From Chloroflexota bacterium (lineage in GTDB: Bacteria > Chloroflexota > Chloroflexia > Chloroflexales > Roseiflexaceae), in contig JACAEQ010000132.1 in assembly GCA_013388755.1 (NCBI GenBank), forward strand, positions 1-43,641: a DNA stretch of 43,641 nt. The letters run 5' to 3'. Below, piece by piece: positions 27,937-38,277 of this stretch. The position numbers and the translations under genes are program-made. Every line of letters starts with the position of its first letter. The first letter of the stretch is position 1. A model generated the notes under the pieces. It was not told where the DNA came from and did no database searches. It saw nothing but the letters and a program-made list of their open reading frames with translations.

Positions 27937-29207
27937 CCACAGATTCCGCGAACGATAGCTTTTCGCTTGGCGTCACCTACTGGCCGCGTCGTGCCGGACC
28001 GCTCTTCTGGCAACGTTACGATCGCGGCGCCGTACGTGACGAACTGGCACATATTGCGGCGCTGGGCTGCGATACCGTGCGTCTGTGCCTCGTCTGGGAA
28101 GATTTCCAGCCTGCGCCTGAGCGCATCGGTAGCCGGGCGATGCGTTACCTTGAACACGTGCTCGATGCGGCCCACGCCGCGAGCCTGCGCGTTGTCCTCA
28201 CACTCTTCCCGGCGACGATCCTCGGCGCGTTACAGTTACCATCCTGGGCCAACGGCCCTGACATCATCGGCGCACTGCGCCGCGCGTCGCACCGTGGGAC
28301 ATTGCTCATCGTGCGCCCGTCGGGACTGGTTCCGGTGCTGGTTGGTGGGCGGTACCGGCCGGTTCAGTCGGGTGACCTGTTCAGTGAGCCGCTGGTCGTT
28401 GAGGCGCAGCGTTACCTCGTACGCGAGATTGGCGGCTACTTCGGCGCACACCCGTCGATCTGGGCGTGGCAACTCGGTGAGGGATTCGAGCGCATCCACC
28501 GGCCCGCGTCCGATACGGTGGCCCTCCAGTGGTACGCCACGCTGGGCGATGAATTGCGCCGGGTTGTGCCACGCGCGCTCCTGATGGGGGCCGTCTCTGT
28601 ACCCGGGCTGAAGCGCCGATCCGGGCCACGACCCGAGCATGTGGCGCAATGCTGCACACTGGTCGGGGTCGTTGCCGATCCTCCAGAAACGCCTGTCGAA
28701 GGGCAGACACGCCACAGCGACGCTGCGGCGTATCTGCATGCACTGGTTGCCGGGCTGGCCGGTCGCCGCACGATTGTGGCCAGCGTAGGGATGCCGCTGG
28801 CCGGGCCGGGCGAGCCGGCAGGCTGCATTGACGACGACCTGTATGGGCGGACATTGACGCTGTACCACGCCACGGCGGACGAACAGGGAACGTTTGTTGA
28901 CAGCGTGCTGGATCGGCTCTATCGCGAAGGGGCATCGGGCGTATGGCTGGCAAGCTATGCCGATTACCCGGAAGAGTTGTGGCGCATCCCACCACTGGAT
29001 CGCACCCGGCGCTATCGGGCGATGGGCCTGGTGGACGCAACCGGGCGCGAAAAACCGGCGGCCGTGGCGCTACGTGACGCTGCGCGTCGCATACGTGACG
29101 CAAGCGCTGCGCGCCCGCTGCCGCCGGCGCTGGATTCTGAGCGCTACTGGAGTGACCCGGAGCGAATGTTCCGCGACCTGTGGCGCGAGTTCAAGGCCTA
29201 CTCATAG
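27933..29207 (+). CDS. Glycoside-hydrolase-like TIM-barrel protein (GH42/GH5 type), possibly inactive
   Basis: The 424-residue product resembles clan A glycoside hydrolases: FSLGVTYWPRRAG at the start, LGCDTVRLCLVWEDFQP on strand 2, and HPSIWAWQLGEGFER where the acid/base NE motif normally lies. Here the Asn is Gly, although the Glu remains. The later strand expected to carry the nucleophile Glu reads TIVASVGMP, without a Glu. I therefore suspect altered or lost activity, but a shifted alignment is possible. No signal peptide is visible, so it acts inside the cell. Its ATG overlaps the stop of the fmt remnant, and its 3' end overlaps ndk (convergent) by 10 bp. The coding quality is good over the full length. 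Confidence 0.7.
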   Translation: MTTDSANDSFSLGVTYWPRRAGPLFWQRYDRGAVRDELAHIAALGCDTVRLCLVWEDFQPAPERIGSRAMRYLEHVLDAAHAASLRVVLTLFPATILGALQLPSWANGPDIIGALRRASHRGTLLIVRPSGLVPVLVGGRYRPVQSGDLFSEPLVVEAQRYLVREIGGYFGAHPSIWAWQLGEGFERIHRPASDTVALQWYATLGDELRRVVPRALLMGAVSVPGLKRRSGPRPEHVAQCCTLVGVVADPPETPVEGQTRHSDAAAYLHALVAGLAGRRTIVASVGMPLAGPGEPAGCIDDDLYGRTLTLYHATADEQGTFVDSVLDRLYREGASGVWLASYADYPEELWRIPPLDRTRRYRAMGLVDATGREKPAAVALRDAARRIRDASAARPLPPALDSERYWSDPERMFRDLWREFKAYS

Positions 29208-29647
29208 ATCCACGGGTCGGTGCTGCGTTTCAGTTCGACCAGTTCATCCGCGCTGAAGAAGAGGCTCGTCTCCATCTCACCATTCTCCGGCGAATCGGAC
29301 GCATGGATCAGATTGCGCCCGATTTCCAGCGCAAAATCGCCACGAATCGTTCCCGGCGCCGCCTTCACCGGATTGGTGGCCCCCACCATCGCACGCACCA
29401 TTTCGATGACATTCGCTCCGGTCACCACCAGGACGACCACCGGCCCCGATGTGATGTACTCGATCAATCCGTTAAAGAACGGCCTGCCCTCGTGGACGGC
29501 ATAATGTCGGCGTGCCAGAGCTTCATCGATCCGCATCAGCTTCAGACCTGCCAGCCGCAACCCGCGCTGCTCGATGCGAGTAAGGATCGGCCCGATCAGG
29601 CCGCGCTGCACCGCGTCAGGCTTCAGAATGATGAGTGAGCGCTCCAT
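29198..29647 (-). CDS. ndk: Nucleoside diphosphate kinase
   Basis: The 149-residue enzyme transfers phosphate from ATP to other nucleoside diphosphates through a phosphohistidine. It starts MERSLIILKPDAVQRGLIG, has the conserved RPFFNGLIEYITSGPV segment and the active-site histidine in NLIHASDS (H115). Length is normal. The start is set at 29647 because upstream residues are not part of the family and GGAGA-type spacing precedes this ATG. It converges on the glycoside-hydrolase-like gene with a 10-bp overlap. Confidence 0.97.
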   Translation of the reverse strand: MERSLIILKPDAVQRGLIGPILTRIEQRGLRLAGLKLMRIDEALARRHYAVHEGRPFFNGLIEYITSGPVVVLVVTGANVIEMVRAMVGATNPVKAAPGTIRGDFALEIGRNLIHASDSPENGEMETSLFFSADELVELKRSTDPWIYE

Positions 29648-29911
29648 GTCTCCCACTTCTCCTTCATGCAGTACGACGGTAGAGGACAAACATCGCGCCC
29701 TGAGCGAACCGCTCACGGGCGCATGAACAGAGGCGCATACCAGTCGGCGGGTGAGCCGCACGCAATCAGCGCCTCACGACAACATGTAATACCCGGTTGC
29801 ATTCAGGCATACAGCGATTCAGTAGAGCCGGCATACACCCTTCGCCACGGCACGGCTTCTCAGGGTGCCGTCATCCTGTACGTCGAACGCTACCTGGTAT
29901 ACCACGGAACC
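29648..29911. other. Intergenic region upstream of ndk
   Basis: I see no gene here. The stretch 29790-29911 is weakly similar to the flanks of family 1 repeats. No clear promoter for ndk could be identified. Confidence 0.4.
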
Positions 29912-30094: not shown

Positions 30095-30442
30095 TCAGAT
30101 CGGCACGGCCTCGCTGATACGCTTGGAGGCCCGGCGCATTTCCATCTTGACCAGGCCAAGGTTGACCATGCGCTGCGTAATAACCACCAGGATGAGTTCG
30201 CGCGCTTCAAGCATGAGGATCGAGCCTTGCTCGGCGTCAATGATCGAATCGACCAGCGCGCCGACGCCGATGCGCCTGGTTGCCTTGTCGATCTCACCAA
30301 ACACGGCGGCCGACATCGCGCCCAGAATCTCGGCGTCTTCCTCATCCATCAGCGTGCTGGCGACGACCAGGCCGTCCTTCCCGACGAGCAGGCTGCCAAT
30401 GACTCCCTCGACTCGAATCAGGTCTTCGACGATCCGGCGCAT
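30095..30442 (-). CDS. Roadblock/LC7 domain protein
   Basis: The 115-residue protein is a complete Roadblock/LC7 domain: a helix (MRRIVEDLIRVEGVIGSLLV), strand GKDGLVVASTL, a long helix with AMSAAVFGEIDKATRRIG, then VDSIIDAEQGSILMLEARELILVVIT and a final helix. In bacteria such proteins (for example MglB) act on or bind small Ras-like GTPases such as MglA and often control polarity, motility or gliding. No GTPase gene is in the window. It lies 53 bp downstream of the giant TPR/motif-array gene on the same strand and is very probably co-expressed with it, which suggests a shared complex (inference). Confidence 0.9.
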   Translation of the reverse strand: MRRIVEDLIRVEGVIGSLLVGKDGLVVASTLMDEEDAEILGAMSAAVFGEIDKATRRIGVGALVDSIIDAEQGSILMLEARELILVVITQRMVNLGLVKMEMRRASKRISEAVPI

Positions 30443-30495: not shown

Positions 30496-33400
30496 CTATC
30501 CTCGCCCTGCTATCCAGCTATACTCGCGCATTGCATCGCGGAAGCGACCCTGACGCGAATAGGCGTCACCCAGTGTGCGGTGCAACTGGCGCAGCACGCT
30601 GGTATCTTCGACATCAGCGATGAGATCGCTCAAATCCTCGACAATCTCATCGAGCATCACATTCCGTTTGATAAGATCGCGGTAGTGGCGCACTGCCAGT
30701 TCAGGCATGCCTGCCTGGCCACCAACCCGCGCGATCGAGAGTCGAAGCACATGGTTGTGCGGCTCAGCTTCGAGCATGCGCAGGTATTCGTCGAGCTCCG
30801 GGTTGCCACTCATCGGCTCCGGCTCGCCGTGAGCCGGCACGGACGGAGCAGCCTCAGCCACCGGCGGCGGGCCGGATGGCACGCGCGGCGCCGGCACAGG
30901 CACTTGCGGCGGTGGAGGAGCAGCGCGTTTGATCACCGGCGGTTCAACCGGCGGCGGCGCCTCCTCTGCCGGCGCCTCTGCGACCGGCTCAAGCTCAGGC
31001 AATGCAAACGACTCGCGTTCGGCCTCAGCGGGCGCAGCCGGCGCCATACCGCCAAGATCGAGCATGGCGATCTCATCCGCTGACAGCCCCAGTTCCTCCA
31101 GGGAGAACGGCGTCAGCACAGCTGGCTCTTCCATCGGCGCCTGTTCCGGTTCCTCAGCCGCACCTGCAGCGGCGGCCAGCATATCAATCTCGTCGCTCGT
31201 CAGGCCGAGTTCCTCGAGTGAGAAGGGACGCATGACCTCCTCTTCCGCCACAAGCGCCCCAGGTACCGGTTCAACCCCGATCTCAGCCTCGCCTGACGGG
31301 AGTTCCTCCGCGTATTCGGCTTCGAGATCAATGATCTCGTCGCCATCACGAATCTGAATATGGGCAGCGTGCAGGTTACGCCCGATCTCGTCAATCCGCG
31401 CCGCCTCGGCCTCAGGATCTGCAACAGCCGCGATGATGTCGGCGATGTCGACGTAGCCGCGCTCGCGACCGAGCGCAATCAACTGATCAACAACAGCATC
31501 GCCGCTGCCTGCCTCAACCATGGTTTCAGGCGTCTCGGCAACGACCGGTGCGGTGAAGGTCTCCAGTTCCTCACCCCATTCCACGTCGCCACCGGTGCCA
31601 AGCGCTGCCAGTTCTTCCTCGGTAATGCCAAGCCGGCTCTCGTCGTACTCCTCGACTTCTTCTTCAAATGCACCCACCAGATCAAGCTCAGCCAGTTCCT
31701 CCGCCGAAAGGCCGAGGTCCGTGAGCGAGAACGGCTGCAGATCGCCGAGCGCCAACCCTTCTTCCTCGCCCGCCTGCTGTTCAGGCGCCATTGATGCCGC
31801 CTCCAGGTCACCAGGTTCCAGTGCGAACGTACCGGCGGCTTCGGAGGACATTTCTGGCTCCGCCTCACGGACAGGAGGACTCATATCACCGAGACCAAGC
31901 GCGGCGATTTCTTCCTCGCTCAGCCCCAGATCGGCGAAGGAGAAGGGCTGAATCTCACCGCTGGCGAGGCCGGCCTCGATACTCTCGATCTCAGGCGCTT
32001 GTGCCACCGGCGGGGCCACCGCTTCGCTCACGACCGGCGCTTCTGCCACCGGCGGGGCCACCGCTTCGCTCACGACCGGCGCTTCTGCAGATACACTCAG
32101 ACCGAGCGCGGCGATTTCTTCCTCGCTCAGCCCCAGATCCGCGAAAGAGAAAGGCTGAATCTCACCACTGGCGAGGCCAGCTTCAATACTCTCGATCTCA
32201 ACAGCGGCATGTGGGATGGGGCCAGGCGTGCCGGCAGGAGGCGTCTCCCCCATGGTGGGCGCGAGCTCACCCAGATCAGGCGCGGCAAGTTCCTCGCCAG
32301 GGCCGAGATCAGCCGGTGAGAACGGTTCTAGCACAGCGCCCTGAGCAGTTTCGGCTATCGGGGCGCCAGGGCCCGTCATTTCGGCGGCAAGCTCTGGTTC
32401 CTCGTCCCCGCGCAGTGGCACATCGTCGAGCGAGAACAGACCCAGATGCTCATCAGGCGTTATGGACGGGCTGGAGACCTCTTCCGGCGGTAGTGGAACA
32501 CCTTCGCGCCGTTGTTGAAGCTTGGAAAAGATGGTGCCAGATTCGGCCGGTGCCGCCGGGCGCATTGGCTCAAGGAATCGTGGCTCGGCGCGTTGTGCCG
32601 GTTGCTGCCAGCTGAACCCACGCGGTGGGAGCGGCTCTTCCTCCTCGATGGGGCTCTCAATCGCTTCTTCAGGGGCCAGGCCCGACATACGTGGCCGTTG
32701 CGGCGGCGCTGGTGGCTCATCGAGCGAGAACGGTTGCAGCGAGGGTGGTAGTTCGCCAATCTCGGCGCGCTCAGCCATGCCACCAGTTTCAAGTTCTTCC
32801 ATCGAGAACGGCTGCAGATCGGGTGGCAATTCACCGAAGTCGGTGCCCAGGTCGAAGCCAGCGCCTGGCGCTCGCCCGACACCCTCAAGATCAAGGTCAT
32901 CGAGCGAGAACGGTTGCATTGCGATGTCGATATCCTCGATAGCTGTGTCGGGCGGCACGGGCGCCTCGATACTCTCCAGGCTGGCGATCTCTGCTTCGCT
33001 GAGGCCAAGTTCTTCGAGGGTGAAGGGCTTCATCGCGCCGAGATCGAGCGCCTCCTCCGCAGGCGCGGCAGGTGGCGGCGCCTCGATACCCTCCAGGCTG
33101 GCGATCTCCGCTTCGCTGAGGCCAAGTTCTTCGAGGGTGAAGGGCTGCATCGCGCCGAGATCGAGCACCTCCTCCGCAGGCGCGGCAGGTGGCGGCGCCT
33201 CGATACTCTCCAGGCTGGCGATCTCCGCTTCGCTGAGGCCAAGTTCTTCGAGGGTGAAGGGCTGCATCGCGCCAAGGTCGAGCACCTCCTCCGCAGGCGC
33301 GGCAGGTGGCATTTCGGCAACAGGCTCGCCAGATGGCGGAACAGGTTCAGCCGGAAGCGATTCCGCGAATGCCGGAACACCGAGACCAGCAATTTCCTCA

Positions 33401-34428
33401 TCGCTCAGGCCAAGCTCTTCAAGAGTAAACGGGCGAGTATCAGCGCTGATCTCGATCTCGGTGCCATCAACCGGTTGCGAAACGACAGGGGGCGCCGTAT
33501 CGACCGCCAGCAAGCTGGCAAGAAAATCGTCACTGTCGGCATAGACGGGTGGCGGTGGCGGCGGCGGCTCAAGCACCGCGGCTACGGGAACCGCCGCTTC
33601 CATCGGGCGAGTTGGCGACAACTGCTCGACCTGCTCCACCTCACGCTGGCGCAACCATGCCTCTTCGTCCCATTCCGGCACCATCGGCTCCGGCAACTGC
33701 ACTGGCGGCATCGTATCGAAGAGCGACCGGGCAGTTGTCTGGTATGGATCCATCGCGGCGGCGGCGCGCCAGTACTGCTCACCATCGGGATTGCCAGCCG
33801 CCAGCGTAAGGTATCCGAGAATCAGGTTGGCCTTCAGCGCCTCAGGATGCGTGGCGAGAATATCGCGGCACAGATCTGCGGCCTCTTCTTCCTGTTCGTC
33901 ACGCCAGAGCGCTTCGGCCAGGGCGACCTGCGCATCAAGGCGCTCCGGCTGATCGCCGATAACCTGGCGAAACTCGGAGATTGCCTGCGGCAGCATGTGC
34001 CCTTTGGCATAGAGACGCGCCAGACCCGCGCGACTCAGGCGGAGGTGCGCATACTCGCTCCCCCAGGCTTCGGTATACAGCCGCAACAACTGGCTCCGCA
34101 ACTCAGGCATGTCGGGCTTGATTTCGAGGGCGCGTTCAAATGCCGTCACCGCGCGATCGAGACGGCCAAGCCGTTCACAGGTCATGCCGAGGCCGACATG
34201 CGCTGGAATGTGCTCAGGGTCAAAACGCAGCACCGACTCGAACGCCTCACAGGCCCGGTCATACTGGTGAGCGGCAAGATACGCCTCACCAAGCGCCTGG
34301 TAGGCGTCAATGCTCTGGGGATAACTCTGAAGGATATGCTGCGCCATCCCGATCGCACGATCGAGATCATTGCTTTCGAGCCATTGCCGGGTCTGGTCGA
34401 AGGCCGTCTGCAGGCTCATCCGTGCCAT
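30496..34428 (-). CDS. Giant TPR protein with repeated PF[ST]LEELGLS motifs and a sigma-1.1-like segment
   Basis: The 1310-residue acidic protein has TPR repeats at residues 1-225 and a TPR-like helical C-terminus (about 1205-1310). Between them is a long Pro/Ala/Glu-rich region holding about nine clear copies of a motif like QPFTLEELGLSEAEIASLE and several degenerate ones (QPFSLDDLDL, QPFSMEEL, GLFSLDDV). Residues 973-1028 (VVDQLIALGRERGYVDIADI...) resemble sigma-70 region 1.1. Three motif copies lie in near-identical 39-residue tandem units. The pattern suggests a scaffold presenting many copies of one short docking motif. Start chosen at the ATG 34428, six bases after GGGAGG. The partner and function are unknown, and the downstream Roadblock gene suggests a small-GTPase pathway (inference). 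Confidence 0.85.
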   Translation of the reverse strand: MARMSLQTAFDQTRQWLESNDLDRAIGMAQHILQSYPQSIDAYQALGEAYLAAHQYDRACEAFESVLRFDPEHIPAHVGLGMTCERLGRLDRAVTAFERALEIKPDMPELRSQLLRLYTEAWGSEYAHLRLSRAGLARLYAKGHMLPQAISEFRQVIGDQPERLDAQVALAEALWRDEQEEEAADLCRDILATHPEALKANLILGYLTLAAGNPDGEQYWRAAAAMDPYQTTARSLFDTMPPVQLPEPMVPEWDEEAWLRQREVEQVEQLSPTRPMEAAVPVAAVLEPPPPPPPVYADSDDFLASLLAVDTAPPVVSQPVDGTEIEISADTRPFTLEELGLSDEEIAGLGVPAFAESLPAEPVPPSGEPVAEMPPAAPAEEVLDLGAMQPFTLEELGLSEAEIASLESIEAPPPAAPAEEVLDLGAMQPFTLEELGLSEAEIASLEGIEAPPPAAPAEEALDLGAMKPFTLEELGLSEAEIASLESIEAPVPPDTAIEDIDIAMQPFSLDDLDLEGVGRAPGAGFDLGTDFGELPPDLQPFSMEELETGGMAERAEIGELPPSLQPFSLDEPPAPPQRPRMSGLAPEEAIESPIEEEEPLPPRGFSWQQPAQRAEPRFLEPMRPAAPAESGTIFSKLQQRREGVPLPPEEVSSPSITPDEHLGLFSLDDVPLRGDEEPELAAEMTGPGAPIAETAQGAVLEPFSPADLGPGEELAAPDLGELAPTMGETPPAGTPGPIPHAAVEIESIEAGLASGEIQPFSFADLGLSEEEIAALGLSVSAEAPVVSEAVAPPVAEAPVVSEAVAPPVAQAPEIESIEAGLASGEIQPFSFADLGLSEEEIAALGLGDMSPPVREAEPEMSSEAAGTFALEPGDLEAASMAPEQQAGEEEGLALGDLQPFSLTDLGLSAEELAELDLVGAFEEEVEEYDESRLGITEEELAALGTGGDVEWGEELETFTAPVVAETPETMVEAGSGDAVVDQLIALGRERGYVDIADIIAAVADPEAEAARIDEIGRNLHAAHIQIRDGDEIIDLEAEYAEELPSGEAEIGVEPVPGALVAEEEVMRPFSLEELGLTSDEIDMLAAAAGAAEEPEQAPMEEPAVLTPFSLEELGLSADEIAMLDLGGMAPAAPAEAERESFALPELEPVAEAPAEEAPPPVEPPVIKRAAPPPPQVPVPAPRVPSGPPPVAEAAPSVPAHGEPEPMSGNPELDEYLRMLEAEPHNHVLRLSIARVGGQAGMPELAVRHYRDLIKRNVMLDEIVEDLSDLIADVEDTSVLRQLHRTLGDAYSRQGRFRDAMREYSWIAGRG
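31346..31510 (-). other. Segment resembling sigma-70 region 1.1 inside the motif-array protein
   Basis: The segment VVDQLIALGRERGYVDIADI, followed by VADPEAEAARIDEIGRNLHA and AHIQIRDGDE, follows the pattern of sigma region 1.1 (L-x2-GKE-x-GYLT-x-E-I...D-x-I-x-I...LGI-x-V). No other sigma region is present in this protein. The match is by pattern only. Confidence 0.5.
31897..32199. repeat. Duplicated coding blocks within the motif-array gene
   Basis: Two near-identical stretches (31897-31991 and 32102-32199) each encode EIQPFSFADLGLSEEEIAAL with its flank. Between them a 42-bp unit (VVSEAVAPPVAEAP) is repeated from 32003 and 32045. Confidence 0.75.
32961..33311. repeat. Three tandem 117-bp coding repeats in the motif-array gene
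   Basis: Identical phase points at 33001, 33118 and 33235 give a 117-bp (39-codon) period. Each unit holds one PFTLEELGLSEAEIASLE copy and an APPPAAPAEE linker. Near-identity at DNA level points to recent duplication or gene conversion. Confidence 0.9.
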
Positions 34429-34509
34429 CACGATCCTCCCGGTGTCCGAACTGCATCGACAGCAGTGTCGTGTAATCTTTTACGCCATGAATGGGAACTA
34501 CACGTGCCA

Positions 34510-34659: not shown

Positions 34660-34736
34660 TGGTCGGGGCGACTGGATTCGAACCAGCGACCTCCTGAACC
34701 CCATTCAGGTGCGCTACCAGGCTGCGCCACGCCCCG
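34660..34736 (-). tRNA. tRNA-Pro, anticodon GGG
   Basis: The minus strand folds as a standard 77-nt tRNA: acceptor stem CGGGGCG/CGCCCCG, D arm with AGCCTGGTAGC, anticodon stem CCTGA/TCAGG around loop ATGGGGT (anticodon GGG, reading CCC/CCU proline codons), a T arm with GGTTCGAATCC, discriminator A and an encoded CCA end. Confidence 0.96.
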
Positions 34737-35943: not shown

Positions 35944-38277
35944 ATGTCACAGAATGAAAATGGCGTACGTGACGGGATGCGGTGGTTTCGAGTAGATTTA
36001 CACATTCACACTCCTGCTTCAGAAGACTATGCAGAGCCGGACGCGACATTGCTGGATATTCTGCAGGAGGCCGAACGGCGTGGTCTCGATATCATCGCCT
36101 TTACTGATCACAATACGGTTCATGGCTATGAGCTTATGCGCCAGGAGATTGACTTTCTCATGGCGCTCGAACGCCAGCAGCGCATTACTGATGAAGAACG
36201 GGTTCGCCTTGATGAATACCGGCGTTTGCTGGCGCGCATCACGGTCCTGCCGGGGTTCGAGTTCACCTCGCACTATGGTGCACACATTCTCGCCATATTC
36301 GCACCCGATCGGCCGATCAGTCTCATCGAGGCGACGCTGCTCCAGCTCGGTGTTCCGCCCGAGTTGCTGAAGAAAGGTGCCTGCTCGATCGCCGACACAC
36401 GTCACGTTACCGACGCCTACGAGATCATCAATCGTGCCGGCGGGATCGTGATCGCGCCGCATGCCAATGGCCCGAACGGCGTCATTACCGAGACGTTGCG
36501 CATGGGAACCAGTGGGCAGGCGCGTGTTGCTGCAACGCAACATCCGGCATTGCATGCCCTTGAATTTGTGAACTTCTACACGGATCACGAAAAATTCACG
36601 TCACCCGCCTTCTACAATGGTAAGACCGATCACTATGAGCGGCGGATGTTCTGCATCCAGGGGTCGGATGCGCACCGGTTGCGCCGCGCGAGCGCCGGGG
36701 AAGGCAATGGCTGGCACCGGCATGGAGTTGGCGACCGGTATATCGAGGCGCTTCTGCCGGCAACGACATTTGCCGCGTTGAAGGAGTTGTTCACGTCGCA
36801 GGAGTTCGATCGGGTGCGCGTGCCGAAACGCGATCAGAAACAGTGGGAAGTGGATACGCTGCGATCTGGCGCATCGAGCGAGCGTCAGGCATTGCGCCCG
36901 GAGTCATCCGCTGCAACGTTGTGGCGCGATATTGCGGCGCTGGCCAATGTCGGGGGTGGTACCTTGATCGTCGGCGGCGCCGATGCCGGTACCAGCATCT
37001 CCGGCGTCAGCAACCCGGAACAGTTGAGCGAGACGTTGCGCCGGAGCGTGCAGGAGCATCTGACGCCCCGGCCGTATCTCACCTTCGAGTTGATCAATTA
37101 CGAGGGACGCGATCTGTTACGTGTCGAGGTGCGCGCCAGCGAACCGCCGCCGTATCTGGGGAATGACGGCGTGATCTACACGCGGCACGATGGTGAGACG
37201 GTCAGTGCCGATCGCAGCGAAATCATCCAGCTCTGCCGGCGCGCGCTGGCCGAGGGCGCGGTATCACCGCTTGACAATGGTCAGGAGCTCGATTTACCGC
37301 GGAGCGGCGTCGAAATTGTTGATGCCCAGAAACGCGCCGGTACCTGGCTCTATGAGGTGCGCGACCTGCGCACGACGGCCGGAGTGACGCGCGATCGCGC
37401 CCAGGGCCTCTGGGCATATGCCATCGGCCGTTACGAGGATCTCCGCGATGGTCGTGTTGATCTTCAGAGCCAGGTGAAATGGAAGGGCCGCCTCGGCCTG
37501 TGGCGCGCCTATCGCCAGGGAAATCGCACCAAATACGATCTTGTGCATCGTGACGCCAATGGCGTGATTGACCATGTCTTCTTTGGCGTCTCCGACTGGG
37601 GGCTCAGCACGAGCTGGCAGGCGTTGATTGGCGATCGGGCCACGGACTCGATCGAACACGAACCGCGATCGTTTGGTGATGAAACGCTGGCGGATGACCA
37701 CGACGCCTTTGAAGAGCCCGCTGGCGATCCGGCACCGGCATGGGGCGACCGGCGCCATCGCTGGCGTGGTCGCGGCGGCTTATGGCGTATCAGCCGCGAT
37801 GCACAGGGCCAGGTACGCTTCGATCTGGTGATGCGGTCCAAAGAAGGAGACGGGATCAAGGAATATCCCGGCGTGTCGCGCGACAGACTGACCGAGGCGT
37901 GGATGAACCTGATTCGCGTGCCGCGACCGCGCACCGGTATTGAGGTGGTCGAAATCATAACCGATGATCACGGCGAGCGGCGCTTTGTGTTCCGTAACCT
38001 GCGTACCGGTGAGACCAGCAACTCGCCATGGCGCCTGCAGGATATCGAAGAGGGAACCGTTCGCCAGTATGCTGCACGGATGGCGCTGCAAGATACGCCA
38101 CTCGACGAGAGTAAGGTGCGCTGGTGGGGGAACCTGGGATATCTGCGTCCGATGCGCAGCCAGATCGATCTGGTCTATCGCGACGAAGATGGTGTGGATC
38201 ATATCTACTATGCGGCCCGACGCGATGAACTCGCCTTCGAGTGGCGCGAGTTGCTTGAGGAGTATGGTGAGTTGTGA
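35944..38277 (+). CDS. PHP-domain phosphoesterase with AlbA_2-like domain and C-terminal repeats
   Basis: The 777-residue protein starts with a PHP metallo-phosphoesterase domain (residues 14-275): DLHIHTP (H20, H22), FTDHN (D55, H56), GFEFTS, IAPHANG and QGSDAHRL supply the metal ligands. Residues 300-430 resemble the AlbA_2 (Schlafen-type) ATP/nucleic-acid-binding domain: IAALANVGGGTLIVGGADAGTSI-like core, then LRVEV and VIYTRHDGETVSA. The C-terminal third has two full copies and one partial copy of an unnamed module (GVEIVDAQKRAGTWLYEVRDLRT... and GIEVVEIITDDHGERRFVFRNLRT...). I suggest a nucleic-acid- or nucleotide-processing role; function is unproven. The next gene overlaps by 4 bp (GTGA). 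Confidence 0.8.
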   Translation: MSQNENGVRDGMRWFRVDLHIHTPASEDYAEPDATLLDILQEAERRGLDIIAFTDHNTVHGYELMRQEIDFLMALERQQRITDEERVRLDEYRRLLARITVLPGFEFTSHYGAHILAIFAPDRPISLIEATLLQLGVPPELLKKGACSIADTRHVTDAYEIINRAGGIVIAPHANGPNGVITETLRMGTSGQARVAATQHPALHALEFVNFYTDHEKFTSPAFYNGKTDHYERRMFCIQGSDAHRLRRASAGEGNGWHRHGVGDRYIEALLPATTFAALKELFTSQEFDRVRVPKRDQKQWEVDTLRSGASSERQALRPESSAATLWRDIAALANVGGGTLIVGGADAGTSISGVSNPEQLSETLRRSVQEHLTPRPYLTFELINYEGRDLLRVEVRASEPPPYLGNDGVIYTRHDGETVSADRSEIIQLCRRALAEGAVSPLDNGQELDLPRSGVEIVDAQKRAGTWLYEVRDLRTTAGVTRDRAQGLWAYAIGRYEDLRDGRVDLQSQVKWKGRLGLWRAYRQGNRTKYDLVHRDANGVIDHVFFGVSDWGLSTSWQALIGDRATDSIEHEPRSFGDETLADDHDAFEEPAGDPAPAWGDRRHRWRGRGGLWRISRDAQGQVRFDLVMRSKEGDGIKEYPGVSRDRLTEAWMNLIRVPRPRTGIEVVEIITDDHGERRFVFRNLRTGETSNSPWRLQDIEEGTVRQYAARMALQDTPLDESKVRWWGNLGYLRPMRSQIDLVYRDEDGVDHIYYAARRDELAFEWRELLEEYGEL

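What the first reader, a model, noticed from the sequence alone, without database searches (positions are those of the whole stretch)
30496..34428. Protein with a long array of one short motif (PF[ST]LEELGLS...)
About nine clear and several degenerate copies of the same roughly 19-residue motif are strung along a disordered-looking Pro/Ala/Glu linker between TPR domains. This looks like a multivalent scaffold where each copy binds the same partner, or a phase-separating polymer. The motif does not match a domain I know. What is seen is the array; the scaffold role is inference.
Basis: partly seen in the sequence, partly recalled or inferred. Interest (0 to 1): 0.78.

Follow-up and report, generated by a model that had tools for sequence, protein, structure and literature searches.

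The report
Repeated docking motif on Roadblock-linked scaffold
A long bacterial scaffold protein carries nine or more copies of one small helical motif that is kept by selection across an order of gliding bacteria and was lost, at least twice, together with a Ras-like switch (MglA) and its Roadblock partners, so it is probably a multi-copy docking array for that polarity/motility switch.

Summary
Window 30496-34428 (-) encodes a ~1310-aa protein: N-terminal TPR block, a 965-aa acidic Pro/Ala/Glu linker, C-terminal TPR block. The linker carries nine full copies of [LMV]xPF[ST][LF]x[DE]LGL[ST]xxEIAxL plus shorter PFSL(D/E)(D/E) variants (chance ~0). The stated refutation fails: the F, L and acidic positions are conserved across Chloroflexales, with pN/pS 0.3 in the motif against 0.8 in the spacers; copy number runs from 1 to ~23. 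AlphaFold gives every modelled copy a helix-turn-helix of pLDDT ~72-86 in a linker of 30-50. The gene lies directly upstream of a Roadblock gene and Ndk across the class. In two independent lineages (genus g2; G141) motif array, Roadblock genes and the MglA GTPase are all absent while both TPR blocks remain; in G148 all three have degenerated together. Best reading: a multivalent docking scaffold for the MglA/Roadblock module, the adjacent Roadblock being the likeliest direct ligand (not shown). No description was found in the papers searched. A functional link is well supported; the binding itself is inference.

The parts
30496..34431 (-). scaffold gene: N-TPR, acidic linker with motif array and sigma-1.1-like domain, C-TPR (ATG 34428 likely start)
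33709..34428 (-). N-terminal TPR block (aa 2-240)
   Evidence: Pfam; AlphaFold pLDDT ~98; most conserved part
33376..33432 (-). motif copy 1 PFTLEELGLSDEEIAGLGV
   Evidence: helix-turn-helix
33205..33261 (-). motif copy 2 PFTLEELGLSEAEIASLES
   Evidence: tandem unit
33088..33144 (-). motif copy 3 PFTLEELGLSEAEIASLEG
   Evidence: tandem unit
32971..33027 (-). motif copy 4 PFTLEELGLSEAEIASLES
   Evidence: tandem unit
32887..32913 (-). short motif PFSLDDLDL (no helical tail)
32785..32811 (-). short motif PFSMEELET (no helical tail)
32098..32154 (-). motif copy 5 PFSFADLGLSEEEIAALGL
31891..31947 (-). motif copy 6 PFSFADLGLSEEEIAALGL
31678..31734 (-). motif copy 7 PFSLTDLGLSAEELAELDL
31327..31494 (-). 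sigma-70 region-1.1-like domain (aa 980-1035)
   Evidence: Pfam PF03979 28.4 bits vs cut-off 22.5; 33.1 bits; folded, pLDDT ~95 in the Roseiflexus orthologue
31171..31227 (-). motif copy 8 PFSLEELGLTSDEIDMLAA
31054..31110 (-). motif copy 9 PFSLEELGLSADEIAMLDL
30508..30813 (-). C-terminal TPR-like block (aa 1207-1308)
   Evidence: conserved in all complete orthologues; helical, pLDDT ~97 in orthologue
30095..30442 (-). Roadblock/LC7 protein, 115 aa, directly downstream; 77-99% identical across the motif-bearing lineages
29198..29761 (-). nucleoside diphosphate kinase (Ndk), third gene of the conserved cluster

Best explanation
The protein is a cytoplasmic scaffold made of two TPR blocks joined by a long acidic disordered linker. 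The repeated ~19-residue motif is a small docking element (PF anchor, short helix SLxEL, GLS turn, short helix xxEIAxL) present in many copies, so that one scaffold gathers many molecules of one partner. The partner belongs to the MglA GTPase/Roadblock module; the product of the adjacent Roadblock gene is the likeliest direct ligand. Shown: the array, its conservation and selection, the conserved TPR-Roadblock-Ndk gene order, co-loss of the array with Roadblock and MglA genes, a predicted local helix-turn-helix. Inferred: direct binding, its stoichiometry, and a role in polarity or surface motility.
For: Array confined to one orthologous gene; PF-anchored profile conserves F, L, acidic and GLS positions over 48 proteins, spacers at background; pN/pS 0.30 motif vs 0.81 spacer in the window, lower in the PF-anchored stretch in 46 of 46 proteins; every modelled copy folds to helix-turn-helix; scaffold-Roadblock-Ndk order in almost all complete loci; two independent losses of array + all Roadblocks + MglA with TPR blocks kept; joint degeneration in G148; full motif elsewhere only where the adjacent Roadblock is >=77% identical to the window's. 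[quoted passage not shown] TPR protein SgmX binds MglA-GTP (PMC7519303).
Against: No binding was computed or measured: no multimer prediction is available, and the models return neither coordinates nor PAE. Only two independent co-losses, too few for a sign test. G094 has lost the adjacent Roadblock (a 3' remnant is left) yet keeps the motifs, with MglA and an MglB-like protein retained, which points to MglA or is a recent deletion or MAG artefact. Thermomicrobiales have MglA but no such motif. The co-losing genus g2 has reduced genomes, so many genes went at once.
Confidence: 0.55

Rival explanations
1. The motif binds the MglA GTPase itself (or its MglB-like GAP), not the adjacent Roadblock; the scaffold is an MglA effector with many switch-dependent sites, like a multivalent SgmX.
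For: MglA is absent wherever the array was lost (G141 and 5 of 5 g2 genomes tested) and diverged in G148; G094 keeps motifs with MglA though the adjacent Roadblock is deleted; SgmX precedent.
Against: Thermomicrobiales G029 has a 75%-identical MglA but no motif, whereas conservation of the adjacent Roadblock follows the motif more closely; mglA is not in the operon.
Confidence: 0.2
2. The motif is a sticker that binds the scaffold's own TPR blocks or itself, making an oligomer or condensate; Roadblock and MglA act on the condensate through other parts.
For: Stickers-and-spacers anatomy, 1-23 copies, linker net charge about -80 to -310; TPR grooves commonly bind short peptides (established knowledge).
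Against: Both TPR blocks persist without any motif in g2 and G141, so they have another job; helix-turn-helix confidence is the same with either TPR block in the model.
Confidence: 0.15
3. The scaffold works on transcription: the sigma-1.1-like domain and the acidic motifs contact RNA polymerase or sigma.
For: Sigma70_r1_1 hit above cut-off; acidic-aromatic motifs are common in transcription factors (established knowledge).
Against: The sigma-1.1-like domain is kept in G141 where all motifs are gone and is not detected in L100-L103 where motifs remain, so they are separable; gene context is Roadblock/Ndk.
Confidence: 0.06
4. The array is a neutral low-complexity expansion by slippage.
For: A 97% identical 117-bp tandem triplication exists; copy number differs greatly between species.
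Against: Codon-level purifying selection and conservation over several families.
Confidence: 0.03

Closest known systems
SgmX (Myxococcus xanthus), TPR effector of MglA-GTP
   Same: Cytoplasmic protein of >1000 aa with N- and C-terminal TPR blocks; here the scaffold's motif array is co-inherited with MglA
   Different: SgmX has 14 TPRs by the later count; no motif array, sigma-1.1-like domain or operonic Roadblock is described for it in the papers read; homology beyond TPR not testable here
RomR-MglC/MglB polarity complex (M. xanthus)
   Same: A short helix on a Pro-rich/acidic disordered protein docks on a Roadblock dimer (PMC12719032)
   Different: RomR has one such helix behind a REC domain, not an array; no sequence relation tested
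MglB/CvnB and Asgard Roadblock proteins
   Same: The adjacent protein has the Roadblock fold (Z 18-19 to 9jue, 3kye, 6hjm)
   Different: Not the MglB equivalent: a separate MglB-like gene sits beside mglA; this one sits beside scaffold and Ndk
Sigma-70 region 1.1
   Same: Domain in the linker matches PF03979
   Different: In a protein with no other sigma region

Membership tests
Roadblock/LC7 (downstream gene) | Robl_LC7 profile over cut-off and Roadblock fold | tested here: met
   60 bits vs 23; Z 19.4 to 9jue_B on the orthologue's model
MglB (GAP of MglA) | NCBIfam MglB equivalog cut-off | tested here: not met
   downstream gene 16 bits vs 200; the other Roadblock, on C118, is closer at 64 bits
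MglA (GTPase elsewhere in the genome) | close full-length sequence match to solved MglA | tested here: met
   C118 GTPase vs M. xanthus MglA E 8e-72
TPR protein | TPR profiles over cut-off | tested here: met
SgmX effector family | direct MglA-GTP binding by TPRs | not testable with these tools
   no assay; SgmX sequence not fetched
Sigma-70 factor | regions 2-4 besides 1.1 | tested here: not met
   only PF03979 found in the protein
Multivalent short-linear-motif scaffold | conserved short motif repeated in a fast-evolving disordered linker | tested here: met
Multivalent short-linear-motif scaffold | each copy binds the same partner | not testable with these tools
   needs binding assay or multimer prediction

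The most novel reading that the evidence does not exclude
A previously undescribed helical docking motif and a scaffold that gathers many Roadblock/MglA molecules on one chain: a bacterial Ras-type polarity hub built on multivalency (possibly a condensate), with an Ndk in the same cluster to supply GTP and a sigma-1.1-like domain that may tie it to transcription.
Probability: 0.3. Interest if true: 0.8.

Novelty: new variant of a known kind. Interest (0 to 1): 0.62.

Why it matters
MglA-type Ras switches set polarity and motility in bacteria, but outside a few model organisms (Myxococcus, Thermus, Bdellovibrio) little is known of how they are organised. This cluster is conserved across Chloroflexia, including the filamentous gliders of Chloroflexales; a multivalent scaffold there would give a clean system for asking how avidity and copy number tune a bacterial Ras switch, and the motif gives a ready peptide to test.

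Tried and rejected
Low-complexity expansion: rejected. Motif used by other proteins of the genome: not found. Motif elsewhere in the phylum: only single scattered hits outside Chloroflexales. Docking inside the models: motif and Roadblock were put in one chain by reading through the stop codons of L060, but neither PAE nor coordinates are returned, so nothing is claimed about contacts. In one search row L066 was coded 'no Roadblock' wrongly: its contig ends there and the same genome has the gene on another contig. The apparent sigma-1.1 hit in L046 is circular, since its twin L104 was in the training alignment. phmmer of the sigma-1.1-like part against PDB gave only implausible weak hits. Foldseek/VIA lists were filled by the Roadblock and TPR parts, so the sigma-1.1-like and C-terminal folds were not tested separately. 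Literature searches found no paper on this protein.

Full report
The observation. The minus strand of window 30496-34431 encodes one 1311-codon protein. Pfam finds TPR repeats in aa 8-210; a second TPR-like block, aa 1207-1308, is conserved in all complete orthologues and helical at pLDDT ~97 in the modelled Roseiflexus orthologue. Between them lie 965 residues with net charge -182, 70% P/A/E/D/S/G/T/Q. Nine full copies of the motif and two shorter PFS[LM](D/E)(D/E)L copies lie there. In shuffled linkers the expected number of core matches is 0.0-0.025. In the own genome the core pattern falls on this gene seven times and on six other places once each; the strict pattern falls only here. Copies 2-4 are a recent 117-bp triplication.

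Conservation and selection. About 49 orthologues with names were found, all Chloroflexota apart from one MAG whose title reads Gracilibacteria, probably mislabelled (Roseiflexus, Kouleothrix, Chloroflexus, Oscillochloris, Chloroploca, Viridilinea, Herpetosiphon and unnamed MAGs). Anchoring only on the dipeptide PF in 48 proteins, the flanks give [LMV]-x-PF-[ST]-[LF]-[DEA]-[DE]-L-G-L-[ST]-x-[ED]-E-I-A-x-L with about 1-3 bits at core positions and background (about 0.1 bit) beyond position 19. Within the window gene, copies differ at 72% of synonymous but 21% of non-synonymous sites (ratio 0.30), against 0.81 in the adjacent spacer (copies were picked by regex, so biased towards low pN). With the PF-only anchor the stretch inside the motif has a lower ratio than the spacer in 46 of 46 proteins. 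Full copies number 0-23 per orthologue. Outside Chloroflexales the strict DNA pattern gives only isolated single hits in the phylum sample. Deeper relatives (f6, f9) keep only the core PFSFDD(L/F).

Structure. Two AlphaFold runs with alignments of orthologues give TPR blocks and the sigma-1.1-like domain at pLDDT 90-98 and most of the linker at 30-50, but each modelled full motif copy as a 4-residue helix, a GLS turn and a 6-14-residue helix at about 72-86. In the first run the chain was read through the stop codon of L060 so that motif copies, C-TPR and Roadblock sat on one chain; no PAE or coordinates were available and no contact is claimed.

Neighbours. Directly downstream is a 115-aa Roadblock/LC7 protein and then nucleoside diphosphate kinase. 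The order scaffold-Roadblock-Ndk is seen in nearly every complete Chloroflexales locus and in deeper Chloroflexia, with a diverged Roadblock in Thermomicrobiales-like families. The Roadblock is 77-99% identical where the full motif is present, while the scaffold's N-TPR is mostly near 50-75%. Its predicted fold matches Asgard Roadblocks, MglB and LAMTOR2. A true MglA (E 8e-72 to M. xanthus MglA) lies elsewhere, on contig 118, beside an MglB-like Roadblock and a DUF4388 protein.

Co-inheritance. Genus g2 of the same family (10 genomes) has no Roadblock protein over the cut-off; six scaffold proteins read have no motif copy, and the five complete ones keep both TPR blocks; MglA is absent in all 5 tested. 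G141 (genus g7) has a 687-aa scaffold with both TPR blocks and the sigma-1.1-like domain, no motif, Ndk directly after it, no Roadblock of any kind and no MglA. The tree joins G141 with G142 (SH-aLRT 96), which has 10 motif copies, the Roadblock, Ndk and MglA, so G141's loss is separate from g2's. In G148 the scaffold Roadblock is ~49% identical (relatives ~90%), MglA 48% (80% in the relative G040), and the motifs are degenerate. Contrary case: G094 lost the adjacent Roadblock by a deletion that leaves its last ~20 codons, but keeps motifs, MglA and the MglB-like protein. Full motif count and Roadblock identity correlate (Spearman 0.54 over 47 loci, not corrected for relatedness). Two co-losses are too few for a formal test. 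The sigma-1.1-like domain is separable from the motif: kept in G141, not detected in L100-L103, which have motifs.

Interpretation. Selection on a short motif repeated in an otherwise free linker, with free copy number, is the signature of multivalent docking sites. The partner should vanish when the motif does: the only candidates tested here that do so are the Roadblock/MglA module. [quoted passage not shown] PMC11580455). Which member of the module is bound is open: the adjacent Roadblock fits gene order and co-conservation, MglA fits G094. A role in gliding or pili is inferred from MglA's known role only.

Novelty. No Pfam family covers the motif and no paper found describes the protein (the library is incomplete). 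It is a new variant of a known kind: a motif-array scaffold attached to the MglA/Roadblock switch.

Noticed in passing
window 31327-31494 (-): Sigma-70 region-1.1-like domain inside a non-sigma scaffold; kept in G141 without MglA/Roadblock, lost or undetected in g2 and L100-L103.
   Followed up: partly
window 32412-32751 (-): Other short linker elements conserved in fixed order: LPxSLQPFSLD, GFSWQxPxxR, SIFxKL, FSxDDVxLR, plus wDExaW and DDFLASLLA after the N-TPR.
   Followed up: no
L046 and L050, scaffold linkers: Deep-branching orthologues carry other repeated motifs in the same linker (GLPSWL repeats in L046; GYTxxLRSLExxGIEPF in L050), as if the linker were a platform for different motif arrays.
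   Followed up: no
L103:10940-11020: Roadblock gene deleted between scaffold and Ndk, leaving an in-place 3' remnant ending ...KRISEAVPI; recent deletion or MAG artefact.
   Followed up: partly
window 29198-29761 (-): Ndk is the third gene of the conserved cluster across Chloroflexia; its link to a Roadblock/GTPase system is unexplained.
   Followed up: partly
L141:2011-2582: MglA (E 8e-72 to M. xanthus MglA) beside an MglB-like Roadblock and a DUF4388 protein in the own genome.
   Followed up: yes
window 34660-34736 (-): tRNA-Pro(ggg) directly upstream of the scaffold gene.
   Followed up: no
window 35944-38277 (+): Gene with a Schlafen/AlbA_2 domain and a PHP-like N-terminus just below its cut-off; possible defence or nucleic-acid protein.
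   Followed up: no
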